Position numbers and translations under genes: made by a program. Shown here one piece after another: positions 1,514 through 19,404 of a DNA stretch of 23,414 nt. The stretch is from a virus, in the IMG/VR virus record IMGVR_UViG_3300013004_000193, positions 1 to 23,414 of that record. One strand, written 5' to 3'. How positions within the stretch are numbered: position 1 is the stretch's first letter; each line of letters starts with the position of its first letter. The notes below the pieces were generated by a model. It was not told where the DNA came from. It saw only the letters and a program-made list of their open reading frames with translations, and ran no database searches.

Positions 1514-4500
1514 TTACGATTGACCAGAATTAAAAGCTTGGGTAAGACTCTTAACCATCTTATTATGTGAAATTAATCCATTAGATATGTAGGTATGTGC
1601 ATCTTCAATCTCAAATTTAATTACGGTACCAATACCGATTGATTCGATTGATTCAATAACTTTATCACTTTCTAGACCTTTAATAACCATACCTTCAGTT
1701 AAGTTATAAGCTCTCATCCATTCTTCATTTGACATAAAGAATTGGTGAGTATCTGATACTTTAATAGAGGTTCCGTCAGTAAATGTAATATCAAATTTCT
1801 CTTGTTCGATAGGACTAGCTTCCATAACTCGGAACATACCGAATTCTTTTGTCTTCTCGTGCATTGTATAAATCATATCACCAACCTTAAGTTCTCCAGC
1901 AATTATCGATAGATCACGTGAGATAGAGATTGGGGTCATTGGGTCTGGACAACCTCCTCCACCACCAGACTTAATCGAATTAGCTAACGATTTAACTGCT
2001 GCCGGAGTTTTAGGGGTTGGAGCCGATATTACTTGACTAATACCAGTTCCTTTGATTTGTGTAACGGTTGGGTTAATGTTTTTAACCACATTAGTCAATG
2101 TATTAATTTGGGATTCGAATGTTGTTACCGGAAGAAGAGAACCAACAATAGAGTTAGAACGATATCTAGAAGTAAATTCAATATCAAATGAGAATCTTTG
2201 ATTTTCTTTTGGATTTGAGTATACATCGATTCCTATAGTTTTAGAATATTCAACATTAGCATTAGGTGAAGCGTTTAAAGATCCACCAATTTTACCCAAT
2301 CCAGAAGTTCCATAACCAAAATAGTCGGTCATACGATATTGATACGTGATAGGAATATTTAGAGCATTTGCTCCTCCAAATTGTACAGTCTTAACTGCAT
2401 CGAATCCACTACCATCAACCACAACATCTCCATGAGTATTTGGGTTAAGGAATAGATAAGCTCCACATGATCTAGGTCCTAATAAGAATTGGTCATTTTC
2501 AACAAATGCAACTTTAGAATATGTAGCACCAATTGCACCAGCTGAAGCTCCATTAAAATAAAGTGCGGTTTGTCTTCCGTATCCATAATTAGGAACTTGA
2601 ACTGGAGCAAAACGAGAGTTTCTTACCGATCCTTTAGTTATATTAAGTAGATTTGCGGTAGATCCAGCACAAGCGGTTTGCCAATCAATAATAGATGGAT
2701 GATCTCGATGAACTAGGATATCAGTATCATAGAATGTATTAATGATTGATGATGTTGACCCAACTACGAAAGATCCAGAAACTGTAGGTTTCCAAATAAA
2801 GTCAGATGTTGGTTGACCATTTGCCAGTGAAGTAATTGCACTTAATGCAGTTGTTCCAGCAAAGTACTCCATTTGATCCAGTGATGTTGCATATTGAGCA
2901 TTTGCATTAATGGTGGTTGATGGAATTCCACCACTACCGTATTGTAAGAATAAATCAGTTCTTACAACTCCATAAGTAGCACCACCAACGTTAGAGAATA
3001 ACTTGGTAATACCATCAATTGCTAAATATCTAGAATTAATATATTGACCTCTAACCTGAGCACTTTGTTCAGGTTGACGATTTATAATTCCATAACGATT
3101 AACATCTAATGTAGCAGGATTTGATAGAGCTAGAGGAACATAATCATAACGTCTTACTGTGTTGTAATCAGCATCGGTTGTTGAATATCCAGCACCGGTT
3201 GAGTATGATGCATTTGCAGGTTGGTATTTAGAACCCCAAATTCTTGCATACATTTCAAGAGGTGATGTATCAGCATTTTGTATTTGAACAAAATAATTCT
3301 TGGTGATAATAACACCTTTCTTAACGTTTAATCCGGCAACCTCATCTTTGTAATTACCGGCAAATATTTTAAGAGTTTTATTAGCCTCTACTGTATATTC
3401 GGTTCCTTGACTGTCAATAACTTTAACAACTAGTACACCTTTAGCAACTGTAATAAGAGCAGCAAGATTTTGTATTTGAGTTTGAAGGTCATTCAATTTA
3501 TCAAATAACGAAATGATATTATTTTCAGGAGTTAAGTAACCTGATGCAATATCAAATGAGTTATGCGCCCAATAGTTTTCACCTTGAGTAAATGATGTAG
3601 AAATGTGTTGTGGAACTCCATCTTGAATAAGAGCAAGTTCTAAATCTACTCTAACTTTATCTTGTTTAGCCTGTTCAACTATTTGATTTAAGCCTTGATC
3701 TACTTCTAGTTCTGAAGGAAAATCTACTTTAATTGTTTCACTGTATATAGATGTAGATGGTGATATTGGCCAACCTGCTTCAGAGATAGATTGAACTTTG
3801 AATTCAATGGCTTCTCCGGCTTGTATAGCAATATCAATTTGATTAATATTTACATAATCAGGGTTTTCAACATCTTCAACTACCCATTTTTGAGCACCGG
3901 TAGTAGGGTCTACTGCTCTCTTTCTTAACTCTGATTTATATTCAGTCCAAGTAGAGAAGGTACCTGTTCTTGGTTGACCGTTATTATCTGTGAATGGAAT
4001 TTGTTGTGGTGAATTAGCACTACCATTCTTTTGTAGATAACGATATTGAATATTAAATTGAACTACTTGTTGAGGACTAGTTCTATCCGATAATTTAGGT
4101 TGAGGCATCGGAAAGAAACCTCTAAGTCTGTACTTAGGATTGATATCTGAATTTGGGTCAGTTCCAATTTTAACAATCTCATTAACGGTGGTTGCATATA
4201 ATTGAGTTGCCGCATCTTTTTGCGTAATTAACGCATTAAGTTTATTTTCATCAACATCTCTTAAACGAGTTGTTGTATATTTAACCGTTTGTATCTTGGC
4301 TCTTAATTGATTAACTGATGCATCTAATGAAGCAATATCAGCCGATATACGTATCTTGTCTGCTTGTAGCTTTTTTAATTTTGCAGCCGGTGAAGTATCA
4401 GTTAAGTGATTATTGATTTGAACTACTTTGAAATCTGATGCAGTAAGTTTTGGTGCATCCGGGGTTAAACCAAAGATTGCTGGTGGAACTTTCTCTTTTG

Positions 4501-5674
4501 ACATTGAGTATAAAAAGGCACCAAAGTCAATTACTGAGTTTTTATAATAATCGGATAAGAAAACCGTATTTCCGGTAGTGTTATCGATGATGGTTAATTC
4601 ATTTGTATAAAACGATGAACCCGGAGACCAATTGATTGCTTCTAATTTAGAATCTGGATCGATAGCTTTAATAAATACTACACAGTTTTCGTTGAATCCA
4701 ACATTAAGGTTGATACTGATACTCGAAACATCTTCAGTATAAAACGAAAGAACATTAGCACCAATAGCAACTGGATCAAATCCTTCAATTAATTTAAGAG
4801 CAACTTTACGTTGACCTCCATCGATAGATGTTATTTCGTAACGAGTATTTCTTCTTCCATTATTTACCACTAAGAAGTCACCAATCTTAAGAGATTGAGT
4901 ATCTAGGTAAGGAGAATTAGAATCATTATAAAATAGGTTATCTAATTGAACAATAATTTGACGATTTTGTATAGTCACTCCGTCAACTACTGATGAAGTG
5001 GTAGAATCAGCAACATCTAAAACAGAAAAATCTCCATAGAAACGAACGGATCTCGGTGGAACATCAATTACATCTTTATCTAGGAAATAAGAAATATTGT
5101 AATCAATTAGGATTTTTACAAAATCATCATAATTGATATCTGATCTTCCTTTAAGTCTCTGTTCGAATACTTGAGTTTTTTCATAAGTATCAAGGTTTAA
5201 GATATATCGAGCAACATCAACATTTTCCGTGTTGAATTTAACTTGATTGGTTAGATCATATGTTACATACATTAAAGGATTAAGAAAAGATTCAAAGAAC
5301 CAATTTTCTTTAGTGGCAAATGTAGTCGGATTCGATACCGATTGAATAGTTGCCGCTTCCTTTTTAAGTTCACTAACTAAAATTTTTCTAAATGAACCAT
5401 CTGACAATTGAACATTCGATGCAGATTCACCAACACCAGAAAGTGCTTCCACATTTTTAGATAATGCAGAGATTTGTTCTTTCATTGAACCGAAAGAAGG
5501 AACCTTAACGGTTTTAAATGAACCACGATTTTCTGGATCGAGCACAAGTATTTCAACGGTATCTGATTTAGAAGAAACTACCTCAGATAGTTTACTCATA
5601 ATCTCGTAACCGTTATTTTGTAGTGCCAATAGGTCACTAAGGAGGGTTGTCAGTGTATATTTAGTTTCGCTCAT
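1514..5674 (-). CDS. Large tail fibre/outer baseplate protein with FN3-like region and C-terminal intein-like Hint domain
   Basis: This is a 1386-aa protein. The N-terminal ~130 residues are mostly helical. Residues about 430-505 form a predicted coiled coil (heptad-like Leu/Ile spacing, Lys/Asp rich). Residues about 535-655 resemble a fibronectin type III-like region, with IEFKVQSISEAGWPISPST near 623-641, as in phage host-specificity proteins. A long Ser/Thr/Gly/Asn/Tyr-rich beta region follows. A poly-Gly run (1237-1241) then leads directly into an intein-like Hint domain (1242-1371) and a 15-residue tail. The ATG is 1 bp from the stop of the upstream 681-aa gene, implying co-transcription and possible translational coupling. 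The leader has no Shine-Dalgarno. Family knowledge: large phage fibre or baseplate proteins combine such modules. Inference: this is a host-contact or outer-baseplate component that is processed at its C terminus. The exact T4 counterpart is not recognised. Confidence 0.8.
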   Translation of the reverse strand: MSETKYTLTTLLSDLLALQNNGYEIMSKLSEVVSSKSDTVEILVLDPENRGSFKTVKVPSFGSMKEQISALSKNVEALSGVGESASNVQLSDGSFRKILVSELKKEAATIQSVSNPTTFATKENWFFESFLNPLMYVTYDLTNQVKFNTENVDVARYILNLDTYEKTQVFEQRLKGRSDINYDDFVKILIDYNISYFLDKDVIDVPPRSVRFYGDFSVLDVADSTTSSVVDGVTIQNRQIIVQLDNLFYNDSNSPYLDTQSLKIGDFLVVNNGRRNTRYEITSIDGGQRKVALKLIEGFDPVAIGANVLSFYTEDVSSISINLNVGFNENCVVFIKAIDPDSKLEAINWSPGSSFYTNELTIIDNTTGNTVFLSDYYKNSVIDFGAFLYSMSKEKVPPAIFGLTPDAPKLTASDFKVVQINNHLTDTSPAAKLKKLQADKIRISADIASLDASVNQLRAKIQTVKYTTTRLRDVDENKLNALITQKDAATQLYATTVNEIVKIGTDPNSDINPKYRLRGFFPMPQPKLSDRTSPQQVVQFNIQYRYLQKNGSANSPQQIPFTDNNGQPRTGTFSTWTEYKSELRKRAVDPTTGAQKWVVEDVENPDYVNINQIDIAIQAGEAIEFKVQSISEAGWPISPSTSIYSETIKVDFPSELEVDQGLNQIVEQAKQDKVRVDLELALIQDGVPQHISTSFTQGENYWAHNSFDIASGYLTPENNIISLFDKLNDLQTQIQNLAALITVAKGVLVVKVIDSQGTEYTVEANKTLKIFAGNYKDEVAGLNVKKGVIITKNYFVQIQNADTSPLEMYARIWGSKYQPANASYSTGAGYSTTDADYNTVRRYDYVPLALSNPATLDVNRYGIINRQPEQSAQVRGQYINSRYLAIDGITKLFSNVGGATYGVVRTDLFLQYGSGGIPSTTINANAQYATSLDQMEYFAGTTALSAITSLANGQPTSDFIWKPTVSGSFVVGSTSSIINTFYDTDILVHRDHPSIIDWQTACAGSTANLLNITKGSVRNSRFAPVQVPNYGYGRQTALYFNGASAGAIGATYSKVAFVENDQFLLGPRSCGAYLFLNPNTHGDVVVDGSGFDAVKTVQFGGANALNIPITYQYRMTDYFGYGTSGLGKIGGSLNASPNANVEYSKTIGIDVYSNPKENQRFSFDIEFTSRYRSNSIVGSLLPVTTFESQINTLTNVVKNINPTVTQIKGTGISQVISAPTPKTPAAVKSLANSIKSGGGGGCPDPMTPISISRDLSIIAGELKVGDMIYTMHEKTKEFGMFRVMEASPIEQEKFDITFTDGTSIKVSDTHQFFMSNEEWMRAYNLTEGMVIKGLESDKVIESIESIGIGTVIKFEIEDAHTYISNGLISHNKMVKSLTQAFNSGQS
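1562..1951 (-). other. Intein-like (Hint/BIL-type) autoprocessing domain, residues 1242-1371 of the 1386-aa protein
   Basis: The domain starts with Cys1242 directly after five glycines (CPDPMTPIS fits the C-x4-T-x-I pattern of intein block A). It contains a block-B-like SDTH (S-x-x-H in place of T-x-x-H) and ends with a clear F/G block, EDAHTYISNGLISHN. The terminal His1370-Asn1371 pair is the one needed for Asn cyclisation. At 130 residues there is no room for a homing endonuclease. The residue after Asn is Lys, not Cys, Ser or Thr, so ordinary protein splicing lacks its +1 nucleophile. This is the hallmark of bacterial intein-like (BIL) domains, which cleave rather than splice. Inference: cleavage at Cys1242 and/or Asn1371 releases the Hint domain and the tail KMVKSLTQAFNSGQS. 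Confidence 0.85.
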
Positions 5675-12396: not shown

Positions 12397-12644
12397 TATC
12401 GGTTTATGCTATTATCGTTTTTATCAATTATGTAGTTATAAAAGAATTGTACCCTTTTAACAGATTCAATCCAATTTATGAATATTGGATTTAGTCTCTT
12501 AAGGAAACCTTCCATGATAGGATTTCCAATCATACGATTAGAAACAAATTTTTCCATTATGTTTGTGTCTTGGTATTGGAATCCTCGGTATTTTAAATCT
12601 TCGGATTCTGCCAACATCTTTTTGTAGATACTTTGCTTATACAT
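12396..12644 (-). CDS. Small helical protein between wedge genes, function unknown
   Basis: This is an 82-aa protein (MYKQSIYKKMLAESEDL...), basic and aromatic, predicted mostly alpha-helical, with no signal peptide or membrane span. Its start overlaps the stop of the gp6-like gene (TAATG), and its own stop overlaps the start of the gp7-like gene in the same way. It is therefore very probably a real, translationally coupled gene and not a chance frame. Sitting between two wedge subunits, it may be a small wedge component or an assembly helper. I recognise no family and see no catalytic motif. The frame is well supported by the tight overlaps on both sides. Confidence 0.75.
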   Translation of the reverse strand: MYKQSIYKKMLAESEDLKYRGFQYQDTNIMEKFVSNRMIGNPIMEGFLKRLNPIFINWIESVKRVQFFYNYIIDKNDNSINR

Positions 12645-14419
12645 TACTTAATAGAATCTTTATTTTTCATTGTTATTCTAGTTGATAGCGTTTCTGGAAT
12701 TACACTTTTTATGATGACGTTAATAGAAGAGAAATCTTTATCACTTAGACCTTCTTCATAATAATTTCCGTAACGATCGAACCATCCACCTCTAATAACA
12801 GGAACTTCATTTTGTTCAATGATAACATCACCAAATTCATCTAATCCCAAGCTAGGATTTTCACCTGGAGCAACGGTTATCTTCTTCAAAGTTTCGGTAG
12901 TAAGAGATCTAACCACATTAGAAGTTTTTTCTATTCGATAATAGAATCCATCGTTTATAGCATCTTCATTTTCTTGAGAAACGAAGGTAACGTCTACTGA
13001 GTCAACTCCATTTACACCTTCAACGATAGAAATTAAATCAGATTTAGGAATTCTATCACGACGAGTAACATTAATTAGATACTCGGTTATTTGATTGATA
13101 ACATCGTTTTTAATTGTAACTGCATCTACTGTATCAAATATTCTTAAAAACACATTGACCGCATATTTCTTAATCACTGGATCTACAACACTTAATTCCG
13201 TCGAAATAATTTGTCTTCCGCTTTGATTGATATATGAAATGATTGCAGCTTTTTCATCCGGATCTAAGTAAAAATTAGTAATATCCGTTGTGAAATAATC
13301 TGCATTCTTTGATAATCTTCTTGAAATATCCGGTAGTAAAAATAGGTAGATTACGTTATCATCTTCAACAAATCCGTCGTTTTTAGTTGTGTATGCATCA
13401 ACATACGAGTAGTTGAACCTAGATAATAGATTAATGTAATTGTCAGGGTTTGCTAAAACAAATGATCTAGAAGTCTTTGGTGCAATTAATTTAGTTAGAG
13501 CGGTAGGCTCTTCATCGGCACCTAAGATAATAGGTTTTTCTATTTCAGTACTAAAGAATTCGTTAATATCGATTTCCTCACCGGTATTTGAGTATGCTGG
13601 ATCCAACCATTTGAATTGAATAGAGGTACTCTTACCGAATATGTTTCCTTGGAAGCCGCTCGTTTTTACATATTCAACCATGATTTTAGATCCAAATGCT
13701 GGAATGCTTCCGAAATCCTCGTTTCCGAATATAAGATCTATACCACCAGCAACACCAGTTTTAACCATACATTGCTTTTGATCTTTAGTCATATCATATA
13801 GAGAATCTTTGATTTCATAAGGCTCACCATTCACAAAAACATAAACCATATCATTTTCAATAGGTCTATCGGTTTGGAAGTTGTAAGTCTGTAGAGGAAA
13901 TCCATCAGATATTGCAGTTTGAGTGTCTAATATACCTTGAACTATCTTAAATGAAGTATATCCAATATTATTTGAATCTACTTTAACGTTTCCTAAAGCA
14001 TTACCCATCTGAATAAAATAATCAAGTCCATTATTTACACAACTTAAACGAGTCTTATTAAGAAATAGAAGATATGATGCATTAATATCTGCCTGAGCTC
14101 CCGGATTCATTTTAATACGAATCGTTCCTTGTGCAGATAGAGCTCTGGTTGGATTATGTCCAACTAATCTAGCTAATCCATAAATAGATTTTTGCTTTTG
14201 AGCAGTTAATATGTTATTCTCTACAATCGCATCTTCTAGGTAAAGGAAGAATAGCTGAGAGAAATTATTAATTACATCAAGTAATTGTCCATAAGGAGAT
14301 GCCTTAGAGAACACGGTTTGTGCCTGAGAGTAAGTATCAATCAGGTACACATATACACTATTAAGTAGTTGTTGATAATCTATCTTATTAGTCGAGAATA
14401 TCTTATTAAGCTTTGCCAT
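12644..14419 (-). CDS. Baseplate wedge protein, gp6 / baseplate J-like
   Basis: This is a 591-aa protein. Near residues 78-96 it has SIYGLARLVGHNPTRALSA, a signature I associate with gp6-type wedge proteins of T4-like phages. An N-terminal helical region precedes it (residues 10-75, with YGQLLDVINNFSQLFFLYLE). Toward the C terminus (about 410-475) the alternating pattern AVNVFLRIFDTVDAVTIK, then YLINVTRRDRIPKSDLISIV and GVNGVDSVDVTF, is typical of the baseplate-J fold, which dimerises to form the ring holding the wedges together. The length is close to T4 gp6 (660 aa). It begins 20 bp after the gp25-like gene and overlaps the next gene as TAATG. In family terms, gp6-like proteins form the iris-like ring around the hub that changes shape during tail contraction. 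Confidence 0.85.
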   Translation of the reverse strand: MAKLNKIFSTNKIDYQQLLNSVYVYLIDTYSQAQTVFSKASPYGQLLDVINNFSQLFFLYLEDAIVENNILTAQKQKSIYGLARLVGHNPTRALSAQGTIRIKMNPGAQADINASYLLFLNKTRLSCVNNGLDYFIQMGNALGNVKVDSNNIGYTSFKIVQGILDTQTAISDGFPLQTYNFQTDRPIENDMVYVFVNGEPYEIKDSLYDMTKDQKQCMVKTGVAGGIDLIFGNEDFGSIPAFGSKIMVEYVKTSGFQGNIFGKSTSIQFKWLDPAYSNTGEEIDINEFFSTEIEKPIILGADEEPTALTKLIAPKTSRSFVLANPDNYINLLSRFNYSYVDAYTTKNDGFVEDDNVIYLFLLPDISRRLSKNADYFTTDITNFYLDPDEKAAIISYINQSGRQIISTELSVVDPVIKKYAVNVFLRIFDTVDAVTIKNDVINQITEYLINVTRRDRIPKSDLISIVEGVNGVDSVDVTFVSQENEDAINDGFYYRIEKTSNVVRSLTTETLKKITVAPGENPSLGLDEFGDVIIEQNEVPVIRGGWFDRYGNYYEEGLSDKDFSSINVIIKSVIPETLSTRITMKNKDSIK

Positions 14420-14439: not shown

Positions 14440-14808
14440 TTAAGGGGTTGCGGCGACGCCGAGAACTTTTTCATCATTAATAAAAATATCAACCAAAATA
14501 CTGTCGGTAATATCTCCAGCAATGAAATTTACTTCAATATCATATGGAATAACCGATCCATAATCGCTTCCATATGTTAGAATCTGAGTCATTATCTCTC
14601 GCTTCACCGAACTAGATGTTATCTGATCATTCCACAAGAATTGTTCTAGGTTACATCCTAAACCAGGATTTCCAAGAACCTCTCCTTTTTTCGTAGTCAA
14701 TAACATCTCTATTAATTGCAAAAATTGTTGGAACATATCATCTCCATCAATCTGCGTAGGGTCGTAGTTAGGATCCGTAGGGACTCTTAGATATATGTCG
14801 ATTGCCAT
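14440..14808 (-). CDS. Baseplate wedge protein, gp25-like
   Basis: This 122-aa protein has the size and layout of the gp25 family (T4 gp25 is 132 aa, also related to the type VI secretion sheath-initiator TssE). It has an N-terminal beta strand, a helix at about 23-38 (MFQQFLQLIEMLLTT), and the characteristic KKGEVLGNPGLGCNLEQFLW near 40-59. A helix with SSSVKREIMTQIL follows, then C-terminal strands. In the family, gp25 joins the gp6 ring and nucleates sheath assembly at the baseplate. The next gene is gp6-like, so the wedge order agrees. The ATG at 14808 has the AT-rich leader AAAAGAATTAATATTA, with no clear Shine-Dalgarno. Confidence 0.88.
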   Translation of the reverse strand: MAIDIYLRVPTDPNYDPTQIDGDDMFQQFLQLIEMLLTTKKGEVLGNPGLGCNLEQFLWNDQITSSSVKREIMTQILTYGSDYGSVIPYDIEVNFIAGDITDSILVDIFINDEKVLGVAATP

Positions 14809-14875: not shown

Positions 14876-15661
14876 TTAAGATCCTCCCGAGGTAAAGAAA
14901 AAGTCCATACCTTCTTCGGATTTGATTTCTTCTTCTATTTTCTCTAGAGCAGTTTCACCTTCACTACGAATTAAATCGAAATTGATTTTGATTCCACCAG
15001 GGAGATTAAAATCAAATGTTCCAATTACTCTCGATAGCTGCATTTTACATTTAGCCACAACATAACGGAAGAATAGCTCATCTTCCATTAATTTATCAAC
15101 CGGCACCTTAGTGTATACATGTAGAACACAATCTCTATCCGGCTTTTGACCAGCGATGAATAGCTTATTGGTATTACGGTTATAGTTATAACTGATGGTG
15201 TGATTGATTATATGTGATGCAACATCTAACCAATACATATTTAGAGTATAGTACATTAAGTTTTCTGTTCCTTGACCTAATGAAACCGAATCAGATAAGA
15301 ACAAACGTTCAATACCAAAATCGGCAGTACCATCAAAAGACATTGATCTACCAAAGTCTTCTCTTAGCTTCTTAACCGAGAATACTGAAAATACGCAATC
15401 CGGAAGAGTAATTGATCTTTCTCTTTTAAATTGAGGAGTACCAAACCAGTTAACTGGAATTACATAATATCTTTCTTCAACTGCATCTTCGTATTTCTTA
15501 TAGAACCATTCCGCAGCATACTTGATAATTCTTTCAATTTCCGGTCTTGGTGTTGTGAATGGTAATGCACATGCAACACTTAGTTCTTGTTGAACATCAG
15601 ATATAAATTGATCGTAGGCTATTCCGGCAGGAGAGTTTGGATCGTTACAATTGTCTATCAC
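14876..15661 (-). CDS. Probable virion structural protein (tail/neck type), GTG start
   Basis: This is a 261-aa protein. The N-terminal helix region is followed by IERIIKYAAEWFYKKYEDAV (residues about 42-61), then an alternating beta region (RYYVIPVNWFGTP, ITLPDCVFSVFSVKKLRE). The C-terminal motif has FNLPGGIKINFDLIRSEGE and a Glu/Lys helix, and the protein ends DFFFTSGGS. The pattern resembles the small structural proteins near connector or baseplate genes in large myophages, but I cannot name a family. The start codon is GTG, which overlaps the upstream TGA as GTGA, and no in-frame ATG occurs nearby. It is the only non-ATG start accepted in the window. Re-initiation after the upstream stop would explain its expression. 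It is followed by a 67-bp gap holding a hairpin. Confidence 0.7.
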   Translation of the reverse strand: MIDNCNDPNSPAGIAYDQFISDVQQELSVACALPFTTPRPEIERIIKYAAEWFYKKYEDAVEERYYVIPVNWFGTPQFKRERSITLPDCVFSVFSVKKLREDFGRSMSFDGTADFGIERLFLSDSVSLGQGTENLMYYTLNMYWLDVASHIINHTISYNYNRNTNKLFIAGQKPDRDCVLHVYTKVPVDKLMEDELFFRYVVAKCKMQLSRVIGTFDFNLPGGIKINFDLIRSEGETALEKIEEEIKSEEGMDFFFTSGGS

Positions 15662-17016
15662 AGCGTTTTAAATTTTTTTGTAGGTATAATTACTCGATCG
15701 CCAGCGACAAAGTACCCTGATTTGATAGGTGAGTATTCAATAACAACCGTATCTTTCGATATTTTTGCATGTTCACCAACTTTACATTTTTTGATTAGTC
15801 CTCCAATAACATCGCAATTGATGACAGTGTTCATACCATCAATTTCACAATTTTTAAGTTGGACCGTTCTATTTGCAAATGAATCGATTAGGTTAGATCT
15901 ATCGGCAATCGAATGTAAAAATAAATTGCAATAATTTAGTGAAGAATCAATGATTTGACAATCGTAAAAATCACACATTTCAAAAGTTCCACTCATGATT
16001 TCGCAATCAACGAAGTCAATTTTCATTAGCTTATTAGCCCTGAATTTACCTGATCTAATTTGAAATGTACAAAGTAAGGTGTCGTAATTCAAATCACATT
16101 CACCATCAATGGTAATGTTACTGAATATTTCATATATACGATCTTTTAGAATTCCATAATAGGATTCAAGTATCTTTGGACTATCGAGTAAATCTACAGT
16201 AAATTTAACTTTAGGAAAGTTCTTTTGGAATAGACCAAAATCTAGGTAAGCTTCTCTTGCGCCTTTAGATTTAGATATTATCGTTACGAATTTATCTATG
16301 TTGTCTTTTGTGTAGGTCTTATTAATAACGGCATCCCAACAACCAATCGTGAATTGATTAAGTATTGTAAGGATCTCACTAGATTTTTCTTCGTATTTAG
16401 TTCCACCAATGTACTGTAATCTCACATATCCATCAATTAAAGTTTCAAAATTTACTCCACTATTTGAAGTGTTGGGAATATCATAAGAGGTAGGATCTAT
16501 GTATTTGGTTTTTATCAGGAATTTTTGCTGAGGGATAAAATTTCTAATTGTTTGTGAATTAAATCCATTTTTTCTTGACGGAAATACTTTATAGACTCCA
16601 TCTTCATCAAATCCTAAAGCGAATTTGATTTTGTCGATTGAATCGATTTTTGTTGATGTATTAAACAGAGTACCTTTAAATGGTCCAGCAATTTCATCAA
16701 TAAACTTAAGATCTAGATAAAGATTATCGGTTCTTTCAGTTTTTGTATTACGTTCCATCCATTTGAATAGATCGATTAGAGTAAGACGAGCGTCTCTGTA
16801 CAGCAAGAATCCGGTAGAAAATGTGAATTTCCCGGATTCATCTCTTTTCAATTGAAAAGACATAGAAGAAGGATCTGAAGGCGTTACCTTGCGCTTCAGA
16901 TCCTTTGATAATGTTTCTAATGCTGCACTATTACTCTTATCACTGTGAAATTCCGCAGTGATTCTTACTAAGCTCTTTTCGAATAGAGGTGTAAAATTAA
17001 GTGAGTTGTAGTCCAT
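15658..17016 (-). CDS. Unrecognised protein with Cys-rich beta-helix-like C-terminal region
   Basis: This is a 452-aa protein. Residues 1-300 are mixed alpha/beta, with DARLTLIDLFKWMERNTK near 75-92 and GYVRLQYIGGTKYEEK near 196-211. Residues about 303-415 show short repeating strands separated by turns, for example MKIDFVDCEIMSGTFEMCDF, with many Cys, Asn and Asp. This resembles a right-handed beta-helix or pentapeptide-like solenoid. Nine of the ten Cys (307, 316, 338, 348, 353, 363, 390, 401, 411) fall there. The central region faintly recalls proteins annotated as putative amidoligases in large T4-like phages, but I see no convincing catalytic set, so that is only an alternative. It ends in the sole TGA stop of the window, overlapping the next GTG. 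Context suggests a structural or assembly role. Confidence 0.7.
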   Translation of the reverse strand: MDYNSLNFTPLFEKSLVRITAEFHSDKSNSAALETLSKDLKRKVTPSDPSSMSFQLKRDESGKFTFSTGFLLYRDARLTLIDLFKWMERNTKTERTDNLYLDLKFIDEIAGPFKGTLFNTSTKIDSIDKIKFALGFDEDGVYKVFPSRKNGFNSQTIRNFIPQQKFLIKTKYIDPTSYDIPNTSNSGVNFETLIDGYVRLQYIGGTKYEEKSSEILTILNQFTIGCWDAVINKTYTKDNIDKFVTIISKSKGAREAYLDFGLFQKNFPKVKFTVDLLDSPKILESYYGILKDRIYEIFSNITIDGECDLNYDTLLCTFQIRSGKFRANKLMKIDFVDCEIMSGTFEMCDFYDCQIIDSSLNYCNLFLHSIADRSNLIDSFANRTVQLKNCEIDGMNTVINCDVIGGLIKKCKVGEHAKISKDTVVIEYSPIKSGYFVAGDRVIIPTKKFKTL

Positions 17017-17037
17017 ATCCGTACCATTTCCTTTTAT

Positions 17038-17045
17038 TATTTATC
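17038..17045 (-). promoter_or_regulatory. Possible T4-type late promoter box (GATAAATA), weak
   Basis: On the minus strand the 38-bp gap upstream of the 452-aa gene contains AAGATAAATAATAAAAGG. GATAAATA differs by one base from the T4 late consensus TATAAATA and lies 21 nt before the ATG, a plausible distance for a short leader. The same octamer occurs at 1443-1450 but only 6 nt before a start codon. In DNA this AT-rich such matches occur by chance, and no T4-type late sigma factor is visible here. Confidence 0.2.
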
Positions 17046-17054
17046 TTAAAGAAA

Positions 17055-18224
17055 TTATACAGTAAAGTCTACTTTCTTGGATTCTCTGTCGATCTTTACG
17101 ATTTTAACATCGATTTCTTGACCAACTTCAAATTGCATATCTTCATTAAGATGAGATTTGTGTAATAGGCCTACGATTTTAGGTTCTAGTTCAACAAAGA
17201 TTCCGTATTTCACGATTCTCTTTACTTTACCCGTTACCACCGATGGCACTTTGTATTTATCTTCGATACCTTCCCACTCATTAACAATAGTTTCTGGTTT
17301 GCATGAAAGTATGATTTTTGTATCATCTATAACATCTTTTAAGAAGAAGTCGATAGCATCACCCGGTTTGATTCTTCCTGAATTGTATTCTTCTAAGTTA
17401 GTTTCTGCTAAATCCGATTTTGCAATTAGACCAGTTAAGCAACCATTAAATTCAACGAATACTCCATGTCGGCTAGTTCCAGTAACGAAACCTGAGTATT
17501 TTTGACCGATAATAAGTTTTTCAACTTCTTGAGGAACAAGGGCTTTAAGATATTCACGGTGAGAAACCACGATATAATCTTTCTCTCTTGAGTAATTGAT
17601 TGGAACAACGTAAATTACCTGTCCAAGTAAAGATTCAAAATTAACTAGTTTGTTCATTCCACCAAGAGATCCTGGCATAAAGCAACGAACGCCATCAATA
17701 TTAATGAAGTAACCTCCATGAATAAGTTCTTCTACTTTACCTGAGTAAGCAATATTTTTACCGATAGATTCAAATACTTCGTTACGTTTAGAAGCTTGAA
17801 CATTTTTAGAATAAGAGGCAACGATAGGAGCATTAGATCCTTTAGTTTCGATAATAACCTCAATTTGATTTCCTACTTTAATATTAGGAATGTACTCTGG
17901 CGATTCTTTTTTAAGATCTAGAATGGCATCTTCTCGCCAACCTACATAAAGAATTGCATTGTGTTTTTCCTCATTAACCGTTAATACTGTTGCAAGGACA
18001 ACATCTCCGGTTTTAGGCTCTTTTATATTAGCAAGAGATCCCATGTATAAATCATAAATCTTTTGAGCGTCTGGCCCATTGTAAAAGACTTTTGATTTGT
18101 CACCTGGAGCATGTTTGATTTTTTTGTTGATTCTTCTTCTCCCAAAGGATTCTGACTCATAAGCTTCCCAATCTGCGTCGGTCCATACTTTTTTCGTCAT
18201 TAAAGATTCGATTTGTTCTGTCAT
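17055..18224 (-). CDS. Four-repeat S1 RNA-binding protein resembling ribosomal protein bS1
   Basis: This is a 389-aa protein. After a ~65-residue charged N-terminal segment come four S1 (OB-fold) repeats, at about 72-140, 158-222, 239-308 and 329-389. Repeat 2 has VRCFMPGSLGGMNKL, like the F-x-PGS-L signature of the second domain of ribosomal S1. Repeat 3 has YSGFVTGTSRHGVFVEFNGCLTG and repeat 4 has GKVKRIVKYGIFVELEPKIVGLLHKSHL, both classic S1 motifs. E. coli bS1 has six repeats, so this is shorter. S1 binds single-stranded A/U-rich mRNA and loads it on the 30S subunit. It is unusual inside a baseplate gene cluster. Inference: it biases host ribosomes toward phage mRNAs, or serves another RNA-binding role. 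The ATG follows AACAAACAAAAAA, without a Shine-Dalgarno. The assignment of S1 repeats is firm and the cellular role is not. Confidence 0.92.
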   Translation of the reverse strand: MTEQIESLMTKKVWTDADWEAYESESFGRRRINKKIKHAPGDKSKVFYNGPDAQKIYDLYMGSLANIKEPKTGDVVLATVLTVNEEKHNAILYVGWREDAILDLKKESPEYIPNIKVGNQIEVIIETKGSNAPIVASYSKNVQASKRNEVFESIGKNIAYSGKVEELIHGGYFINIDGVRCFMPGSLGGMNKLVNFESLLGQVIYVVPINYSREKDYIVVSHREYLKALVPQEVEKLIIGQKYSGFVTGTSRHGVFVEFNGCLTGLIAKSDLAETNLEEYNSGRIKPGDAIDFFLKDVIDDTKIILSCKPETIVNEWEGIEDKYKVPSVVTGKVKRIVKYGIFVELEPKIVGLLHKSHLNEDMQFEVGQEIDVKIVKIDRESKKVDFTV

Positions 18225-18287
18225 TTTTTTGTTTGTTAAAGTGAATGTAAATAGATTATTGTATTATTAGATTATATATCTCTGGGA

Positions 18288-18641
18288 TTATTCCAATCCA
18301 TTAACTAATGGAGTTGATTGAACTGGAGCCGTGGTTGCTCCTGTCTGTGCGGCCGGAGATCCAGCAGTAGCAACTGCTTGGCCTGGAGGGATTGTGATGG
18401 CTTTTACTGTGGCGGATTTTACAAAAGTCTCTACTGCCTTTGATAATTTTGGAGCCACTGTATCGGCAAACTTAGTTGATGCAGCTGCTCTAGCGGAAGA
18501 AACAACGCCATCCGCATCTCCTTTAGCCTTTGCATTACTAAGACCTGACATTTGATCCATGAATTCTTTTAATCCAGCGTTGAATCCATCTTTCATTATG
18601 GTATTCATTTCTTTTTCTAAATCGGACGTTTTTAAAGGCAT
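18288..18641 (-). CDS. Small Ala-rich protein next to the spike gene, function unknown
   Basis: This is a 117-aa protein. The N-terminal part (1-75) is helical (EKEMNTIMKDGFNAGLKEFM, ARAAASTKFADTVAPKL). The C-terminal 40 residues are low-complexity Ala/Thr/Pro/Gly (PPGQAVATAGSPAAQTGATT) and probably extended. It starts 7 bp after the gp5-like spike stop and precedes the S1 gene by 63 bp. It has no PAAR motif, signal peptide or membrane segment, so it is not an obvious spike tip. It could be a spike-associated or virion protein, or an assembly chaperone. Position and compact spacing support a real gene, but the function is unknown. Confidence 0.7.
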   Translation of the reverse strand: MPLKTSDLEKEMNTIMKDGFNAGLKEFMDQMSGLSNAKAKGDADGVVSSARAAASTKFADTVAPKLSKAVETFVKSATVKAITIPPGQAVATAGSPAAQTGATTAPVQSTPLVNGLE

Positions 18642-18648
18642 ATCTTAA

Positions 18649-19404
18649 TTATTTAGTTTTGACTTCCATTTGACTTAAATGAGTTTTCTTCATACCTCCA
18701 GCAGGACCAGCGGTTGGTGGAGATGTAGGAGCTCCTAAATTACCTATATGAGTATGAGTATTAAAATAGTCCATAAATGTATCTCCTAGAACAAGATGTT
18801 CTTTTGCACCTTTACCTAATTCTATGCTTGAAGCGTGGTCAATTATCAAGTTTTTACATTTAGCGGTTATTGTTTCTGATTGAGTGATATTCATATTACC
18901 ATCATCTAACATCTCAACCTTACCTTTTCCTGAGGCATTTTGAATGATAATAGATTTGTCAGGTTTTATATTAATTTGAGATTTTTTATAATCAATCATA
19001 AGGCCTTTTTCTTCAGTAAAGAATATCTTGAGTGCTCCTTCAGTAACAGTATCATAAACTATTATATGAGCATTTGTGTAAGAGTTTTCAATTTCTTTAC
19101 GAGCATCTTGTGATAAATGCTGATTGAAGAAATATTCAGGATAATAGATGTTTCCATTATCAAATTTGATGGAAACGATAGATCCCTTTTTGGGAACTGA
19201 GAAGAAAGATCCTCCATCTGCACTTCCGGCAGAGATATTATTTCCTGGATAGGCCCATGGAATAGCATCATTTTCTAGTTCATCGAACTTACCAAAAACT
19301 TTAACTTTGATTCGACCAATTTTCTGAGGATCTTCAATATCTACCACTTCACCTAACCATGAGGTGTTACGTAAATCATCTTTTGAAAAGTCTCTTATTG
19401 CCAT
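18649..19404 (-). CDS. Baseplate central spike protein, gp5/gpV-like
   Basis: This is a 251-aa protein. Residues about 12-92 form a gp5-type OB-fold: WLGEVVDIEDPQKIGRIKVK, then IPWAYPGNN, then FFSVPKKGSIVSIKFDNGN and YYPEYF. This is the N-terminal module shared by T4 gp5, P2 gpV and VgrG. Residues about 105-205 show repeating short strands (INIKPDKSIIIQNASGKG, MNITQSETITAKCKNLIIDH) expected of the trimeric beta-helix needle. The C terminus has FNTHTHIGNLGAPTSPP, a His-rich (H217, H219) ending common in these spikes. No lysozyme domain is inserted between the OB-fold and helix, unlike T4 gp5, so it is a piercing spike without cell-wall hydrolase activity. It lies between the tube-initiator-like and S1-associated genes. 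Confidence 0.88.
   Translation of the reverse strand: MAIRDFSKDDLRNTSWLGEVVDIEDPQKIGRIKVKVFGKFDELENDAIPWAYPGNNISAGSADGGSFFSVPKKGSIVSIKFDNGNIYYPEYFFNQHLSQDARKEIENSYTNAHIIVYDTVTEGALKIFFTEEKGLMIDYKKSQINIKPDKSIIIQNASGKGKVEMLDDGNMNITQSETITAKCKNLIIDHASSIELGKGAKEHLVLGDTFMDYFNTHTHIGNLGAPTSPPTAGPAGGMKKTHLSQMEVKTK

What the first reader, a model, noticed from the sequence alone, without database searches (positions are those of the whole stretch)
17055..18224. bS1-like four-repeat protein encoded inside the baseplate operon
Four S1 repeats are visible, including the PGSL signature of S1 domain 2, which in bS1 takes part in ribosome docking. Viruses encoding ribosomal proteins are known, but an S1-like protein among spike and wedge genes is not a standard T4-type arrangement. 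Inference: expressed with late genes, it could redirect ribosomes to A/U-rich, SD-less late mRNAs. A virion-associated RNA-binding role is the alternative.
Basis: partly seen in the sequence, partly recalled or inferred. Interest (0 to 1): 0.75.

Follow-up and report, generated by a model that had tools for sequence, protein, structure and literature searches.

The report
Phage ribosomal-S1-like protein beside baseplate genes
A group of large viruses that probably infect Bacteroidota always carries, between two tail-baseplate genes, a shortened copy of the ribosomal protein that feeds messenger RNA to the ribosome; it keeps its ribosome-docking and RNA-gripping residues and its own promoter-like element, so it probably works on the host ribosome late in infection.

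Summary
ORF 17055-18224 (-) encodes 389 aa, colinear with domains 1-4 of bacterial bS1, with the PGSL motif in domain 2. Phage S1 proteins and the idea that they steer translation are already published for huge phages (Al-Shayeb 2020). What is added here: (1) in this lineage the gene is fixed: in 50 of 50 non-identical contigs with both flanks it sits between the spike (gpV/gp5-type) gene and the g452/neck genes; (2) across the clade it keeps bS1's uS2-docking aromatic (Tyr, 52/56) and loop-2 basic residue (K/R, 55/56) and a fully conserved domain-4 RNA-binding face (Y, F, H, K/R, 56/56); (3) some members keep an N-terminal F-D/N-W motif found in 42/42 Bacteroidota bS1 and 0/22 others; (4) it has a conserved promoter-like ATATATAAT element (43/54) that in a 254-kb relative also precedes the tail sheath gene. 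Best reading: a 30S-docking bS1 paralogue made with the late genes. A virion role is not excluded. No biochemistry exists.

The parts
17055..18224 (-). bS1-like protein, 389 aa, four S1/OB domains (colinear with bS1 D1-D4; D5-D6 absent)
18156..18179 (-). N-terminal DADWEAYE (residues 16-23), degenerate form of the FDW-D-FE motif of Bacteroidota bS1 (intact in relatives L005, L006, L114, L127, L130 and Lak)
18030..18068 (-). helix 53-65, counterpart of the bS1 N-terminal helix that docks on uS2 (Tyr60 aligns with E. coli Phe9)
   Evidence: docking residues from PMC10123108
17805..18026 (-). domain 1 (residues 67-140); Arg97 aligns with E. coli Lys43 that enters the uS2 zinc pocket
17556..17756 (-). 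domain 2 (residues 157-223), FMPGSLGG; most conserved domain of the clade; Tyr172/Phe182 align with F120/F130
17298..17513 (-). domain 3 (residues 238-309); canonical His replaced (Ala268)
17058..17258 (-). domain 4 (residues 323-389); canonical RNA face Tyr340, Phe343, His355, Lys384 conserved in the clade (Y, F, H 56/56; K/R 56/56)
18248..18282 (-). conserved promoter-like element GAGATATATAATCTAATAATACAATAATCTATTTA upstream of S1
17036..17045 (-). second promoter-like element GATAAATAAT between S1 and g452
18649..19404 (-). spike/gpV OB-domain baseplate protein (upstream neighbour)
18288..18641 (-). small fast-evolving protein g117, usually the immediate upstream neighbour
15658..17016 (-). 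g452, immediate downstream neighbour, unknown structural-type protein with weak pentapeptide-like repeats
14876..15661 (-). head-tail adaptor (Ad2)/neck-type protein
14440..14808 (-). gp25-type baseplate wedge protein
12644..14419 (-). gp6/J-type baseplate wedge protein

Best explanation
A phage-encoded, four-domain bS1 paralogue, probably of Bacteroidota bS1 ancestry, made from its own late-type promoter with the tail genes. Its N-terminal helix and domain 1 dock on uS2 of the host 30S subunit, domain 2 sits at the mRNA exit, and domain 4, whose RNA face is intact, grips the A-rich leader around -11 to -14 of phage late mRNAs. It thereby replaces or tops up the loosely bound host bS1 and sustains or biases initiation on late mRNAs. 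Shown here: homology, domain make-up, conservation of docking and RNA-face residues, invariant locus, conserved upstream element, SD-less A-rich leaders. Inferred: docking, timing, exchange with host bS1, the effect on translation, and the host.
For: Colinearity with bS1 D1-D4. Top solved-structure matches of the model are bS1 in 30S mRNA-delivery complexes, and bS1 in a 30S pre-initiation complex matches with TM 0.75 by target over 169 columns. The Phe9 position is Tyr in 52/56, as in 41/42 Bacteroidota; Lys43 is K/R in 55/56 and ranks 9th of 87 columns in D1-region conservation; F120/F130 positions aromatic in 56/56; D4 Y/F/H and K/R in 56/56, against docking residues named in PMC10123108. 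Conserved ATATATAAT upstream of S1 in 43/54 vs 1.2 expected and 0/51 for gpV; the same element precedes the tail sheath gene of the 254-kb relative. SD-like sites 6/138 vs 3.4 by shuffle (Firmicutes control 37/59), with A excess at -14 to -11; PMC6847099 places bS1 domain 4 near nt -12 to -15. Precedents: rpS1 in huge phages and late-expressed bS21 in structural blocks of Bacteroidota phages.
Against: No binding, expression or proteomic data. Bacteroidota phage PTm1 lacks any S1-domain match and is equally SD-less, so the protein is not needed for such translation. D3 has lost its canonical His in this clade. All NCBIfam bS1 equivalog cut-offs are missed. The tree puts the phage clade on a long branch outside every phylum. 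An invariant baseplate position is also what a structural protein would show.
Confidence: 0.6

Rival explanations
1. Virion-associated: the OB-fold protein is a baseplate or tail component, or is packaged and delivered with the genome, and the bS1 ancestry is incidental to its present site of action.
For: Invariant place between spike and neck genes in 50/50 contigs; in the other large clade it follows a cassette with a homologue of the window's fibre-like protein; OB folds are common in baseplates (general knowledge). PMC9723584 raised packaging for bS21.
Against: The exposed docking residue (K/R) and the D4 RNA face stay conserved; Lak carries it beside tRNA-His guanylyltransferase, DnaB and RNA ligase instead; cultured Tenacibaculum phage PTm1, with related baseplate genes, lacks it.
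Confidence: 0.16
2. Competitor: the truncated bS1 occupies the uS2 site without D5-D6 and shuts down host initiation rather than helping phage mRNAs.
For: Docking part conserved, C-terminal domains missing. Phage bS21 in E. coli ribosomes severely impaired translation (PMC6375957).
Against: Phage and Bacteroidota mRNAs look alike in their leaders, so blocking would hit the phage too; the D4 RNA face is conserved; the upstream element suggests late, not early, expression; four-domain bS1 is normal in some bacteria.
Confidence: 0.11
3. Off-ribosome RNA binder: it coats, protects or remodels late phage mRNA, or acts in transcription, without docking on 30S.
For: Intact RNA face in D4; S1 domains are used in many RNA proteins; Al-Shayeb et al. 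leave 'on or off the ribosome' open.
Against: Would not explain why the uS2-docking Tyr and loop-2 K/R are kept in D1, the fastest-evolving of the four domains.
Confidence: 0.13

Closest known systems
Bacterial ribosomal protein bS1 (rpsA), D1-D4; nearest by motif Bacteroidota bS1
   Same: Colinear domains, docking Tyr and basic loop-2 residue, PGS motif in D2, RNA face in D4, FDW N-terminal motif in some members
   Different: About 23-27% identity, lacks D5-D6, extra N-terminal stretch, D3 His lost, below all equivalog cut-offs
Phage rpS1 of huge phages (Al-Shayeb et al. 2020, PMC7162821) incl. Mahaphages and Lak
   Same: One clade with the window protein (100/100); SD-less genomes; same proposed role
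   Different: Mahaphage and Lak genes lie elsewhere; in the Mahaphage-type clade the D4 Phe is Leu while D3 His is kept, the reverse of this clade
Phage bS21 in structural blocks of Bacteroidota phages (Chen et al. 2022, PMC9723584)
   Same: Translation-initiation ribosomal protein placed among virion genes, late expression, Bacteroidota hosts
   Different: Different protein; no bS21 found in the 134-, 254-, 246- or 294-kb records nearest the window
PhiMa05 cyanophage bS1 (PMC13157829)
   Same: Phage-encoded bS1
   Different: Groups with bacterial S1, away from this clade (long branch); sits with other ribosomal protein genes

Membership tests
bS1 (ribosomal protein S1) | Tandem S1/OB domains in bS1 order | tested here: met
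   D1-D4 colinear; D5-D6 absent, as in some Firmicutes bS1
bS1 (ribosomal protein S1) | uS2-docking N-terminal helix aromatic and loop-2 Lys (E. coli Phe9, Lys43) | tested here: met
   Tyr 52/56; K/R 55/56, at sequence level only
bS1 (ribosomal protein S1) | Canonical RNA-binding face in central domains | tested here: inconclusive
   D4 conserved 56/56; D3 lacks the His and Asp
bS1 (ribosomal protein S1) | Score above curated bS1 equivalog cut-offs | tested here: not met
   Best 156.6 bits vs cut-off 624; hence called a paralogue or bS1-like, not bS1
bS1 (ribosomal protein S1) | Binds the 30S subunit and mRNA | not testable with these tools
   needs biochemistry
huge-phage rpS1 | Same clade as S1 proteins of published huge phages | tested here: met
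   100/100; hhalign E 4e-55
huge-phage rpS1 | Genome rarely uses Shine-Dalgarno | tested here: met
   window 1/14, 254-kb relative 6/138
Bacteroidota bS1 as donor | Phage clade nested in Bacteroidota bS1 | tested here: inconclusive
   Tree outside on a long branch; grouping with Bacteroidota not rejected, p 0.23, and least bad of three tested; FDW motif shared
virion structural protein | Present in purified particles | not testable with these tools
   no isolate and no proteome

The most novel reading that the evidence does not exclude
The S1 protein is both a ribosome factor and a virion passenger: assembled with the spike/neck region and delivered into the cell, so that phage-marked 30S subunits exist from the first minutes of infection; this would explain why the gene never leaves the baseplate block.
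Probability: 0.07. Interest if true: 0.85.

Novelty: new variant of a known kind. Interest (0 to 1): 0.52.

Why it matters
If right, a widespread lineage of large phages treats a ribosomal initiation protein as a core late gene, not a stray acquisition, in hosts whose ribosomes ignore Shine-Dalgarno sequences and where bS1 is suspected to read the A-rich leader instead. That would make the open question of what bS1 does in Bacteroidota initiation testable with a natural D1-D4 minimal version. It also warns that the published link between phage rpS1 and missing SD may partly reflect host phylum.

Tried and rejected
Contamination by host DNA: rejected, since the gene is in the same phage block in 50/50 contigs. 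A recent host acquisition: rejected, since the phage S1 clade is deep. Firmicutes-type four-domain bS1 as donor: not rejected outright (AU p 0.077), but worse than Bacteroidota and without the FDW motif. A paired bS21: not found in the nearest large records; hits only in three marine and several Mahaphage-type records. A uS2 partner: none found in five records. Gut and wastewater 'phage' records with S1: their S1 genes look like ordinary bacterial bS1 (cmk-rpsA-himD order in one), so used only as bS1 references. The sigma-70 and terminator scan gave chance-level counts. Paper searches for an S1 protein in a virion proteome or tied to a baseplate operon found nothing relevant in the held library. 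One AlphaFold job was enough; no ribosome complex could be modelled.

Full report
What is there. The ORF at 17055-18224 (-) is a 389-aa protein. Pfam S1 scores 4.9e-26, with D3 and D4 passing on their own. NCBIfam bS1 models align over residues 65-387 with D1-D4 of bS1, though below their equivalog cut-offs. Solved bS1 chains align over 60-386. An AlphaFold model (mean pLDDT 82.5, pTM 0.55; domains confident, relative placement not) shows a helix at 53-65 followed by four S1 barrels. Its best PDB matches are bS1 in 30S mRNA-delivery complexes, including the two-domain docked form (TM 0.75 by target).

Neighbourhood. The gene lies between a gpV/gp5-type spike gene plus a small fast-evolving gene (g117) and g452, a neck-type gene, gp25 and gp6. 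Scans of IMG/VR with two clade alignments gave 139 loci and 108 distinct proteins. In the window's clade, every non-identical contig with both flanks (50/50) has the order gpV - (g117) - S1 - g452 - neck; the contigs reach 294 kb and identity to the window protein falls to 38%. The same order is seen in the 462-kb LR756500. In the Mahaphage-type clade S1 follows a different cassette (a ~1250-aa, a 229-aa and a ~125-aa gene), and where longer flanks were held (LR756502, LR745206 and two further contigs) a homologue of the window's fibre-like protein lies just before it. In Lak it lies near tRNA-His guanylyltransferase, DnaB and RNA ligase. So the baseplate place is clade-specific but, inside the clade, fixed.

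Origin. Ten phage S1 proteins form one clade (100/100) on a long branch outside all bacterial phyla. Grouping them with Bacteroidota bS1 is not rejected (p 0.23) and costs least of three groupings tried. An N-terminal F-D/N-W motif is in 42/42 Bacteroidota bS1 and 0/22 others, and is present in many close relatives of the window, in L249 and in Lak, degenerate in the window itself (DADWEAYE). Other genes point the same way: records related to the gp6-type and neck-type proteins are mostly phages of Prevotella, Tenacibaculum, Chryseobacterium and Flavobacterium, with Sphingomonas, Rhizobium and Stenotrophomonas as minorities. [quoted passage not shown] Host assignment is therefore likely, not proven.

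Residue test. D'Urso et al. (PMC10123108) name Phe5, Phe9 and Lys43 for uS2 docking and Lys117, Phe120 and Phe130 in domain 2. In 56 members of the clade, position 9 is Tyr in 52 (Bacteroidota: Tyr 41/42), position 43 is K/R in 55, 120 is Tyr in 56 and 130 is Phe in 56; position 117 is His in all. Phe5 itself is not kept: the position is mostly aliphatic in the phage and in Bacteroidota alike. The class-entropy rank of the Lys43 column is 9 of 87 in the D1 region. The canonical S1 RNA face is complete in D4 (Tyr, Phe, His and K/R in 56/56) but lacks its His in D3; the Mahaphage clade shows the reverse. Purifying selection is moderate (dN/dS 0.14; most neighbours 0.06-0.18, g117 0.79).

Expression signals. 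A promoter-like ATATATAAT lies within 80 nt upstream of S1 in 43/54 non-identical contigs against 1.2 expected, mostly 35-39 nt before the ATG; it is absent before gpV (0/51), rare in exact form before g452 (6/56) and common before gp25 (35/56). The window, L004 and L005 share about 34 nt here although L005 is only 58% identical in protein. In 141 kb of the 254-kb relative, [GA]ATATATAAT occurs six times, each 14-55 nt before an ORF start on the same strand, including a tail sheath gene. The total count equals chance expectation (about 7); the positions do not look like chance. Likeness to the T4 late promoter TATAAATA is from memory. A looser element precedes g452, so S1 may be its own short transcription unit.

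mRNA leaders. SD-like sites: window 1/14, 254-kb relative 6/138 (shuffle 3.4), Bacteroidota gene starts 18/185 (shuffle 14.9), Firmicutes control 37/59 (shuffle 21). A is in excess at -14 to -11 in the phage (0.53-0.63 against about 0.45 farther upstream, 254-kb relative) and in Bacteroidota. Baez et al. (PMC6847099) found A at -12/-13 to favour initiation in F. johnsoniae and placed bS1 domain 4 near -12 to -15. A protein that stops after a well-kept domain 4 fits that geometry. Control: Tenacibaculum phage PTm1, without any S1-domain match, has 0/36 SD-like starts and a similar A hump. Thus phage S1 is not needed for SD-less translation, and the published association of rpS1 with missing SD (PMC7162821) may partly reflect host phylum. 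This is inference from one control genome.

Mechanism and verdict. The best reading is a 30S-docking bS1 paralogue expressed with late genes that replaces or supplements host bS1. [quoted passage not shown] johnsoniae preparations, and adding it raised initiation on one SD-less mRNA twofold (PMC9976891). Docking, timing and effect are inferred. Virion association, competition with host bS1, and off-ribosome RNA binding remain open. Phage rpS1 and the ribosome-hijack idea are published; the fixed baseplate locus, the residue-level conservation, the Bacteroidota motif and the conserved upstream element were not found in the papers I could read. Hence: new variant of a known kind, interest 0.52.

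Noticed in passing
window 1514-5674 (-), residues ~1245-1370 of the 1386-aa protein: The fibre-like protein (PHROG 29329) ends in a Hint/intein-like stretch (GGGGGCPDPMTP...HNKMV; Pfam Intein_splicing E 1.8e-4, below cut-off) with only about 16 residues after it: possible C-terminal autoprocessing or a near-terminal intein.
   Followed up: no
window 18288-18641 (-): g117 between spike and S1 evolves very fast (dN/dS about 0.79 to the 87% relative) while all tested neighbours are constrained; in LR756500 a 424-aa protein with weak tape-measure similarity stands in its place.
   Followed up: partly
L004 3114 and 9947; L108 13237 and 16693; L109 8881; L110 17259: [GA]ATATATAAT lies 14-55 nt before ORF starts only, including tail sheath: candidate late promoter of this phage group.
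   Followed up: partly
L192-L220, upstream of S1: In Mahaphage-type contigs S1 follows a conserved cassette of a ~1250-aa, a 229-aa and a ~125-aa protein of unknown function.
   Followed up: partly
records behind L150, L182, L169: Three marine relatives with baseplate-linked S1 also encode a bS21-family protein of 95-100 aa open frame, so some phages may carry both bS1 and bS21.
   Followed up: no
clade of the window vs Mahaphage clade: Complementary loss: this clade loses the RNA-face His in D3 and keeps D4; the other keeps D3 and has Leu for Phe in D4.
   Followed up: partly
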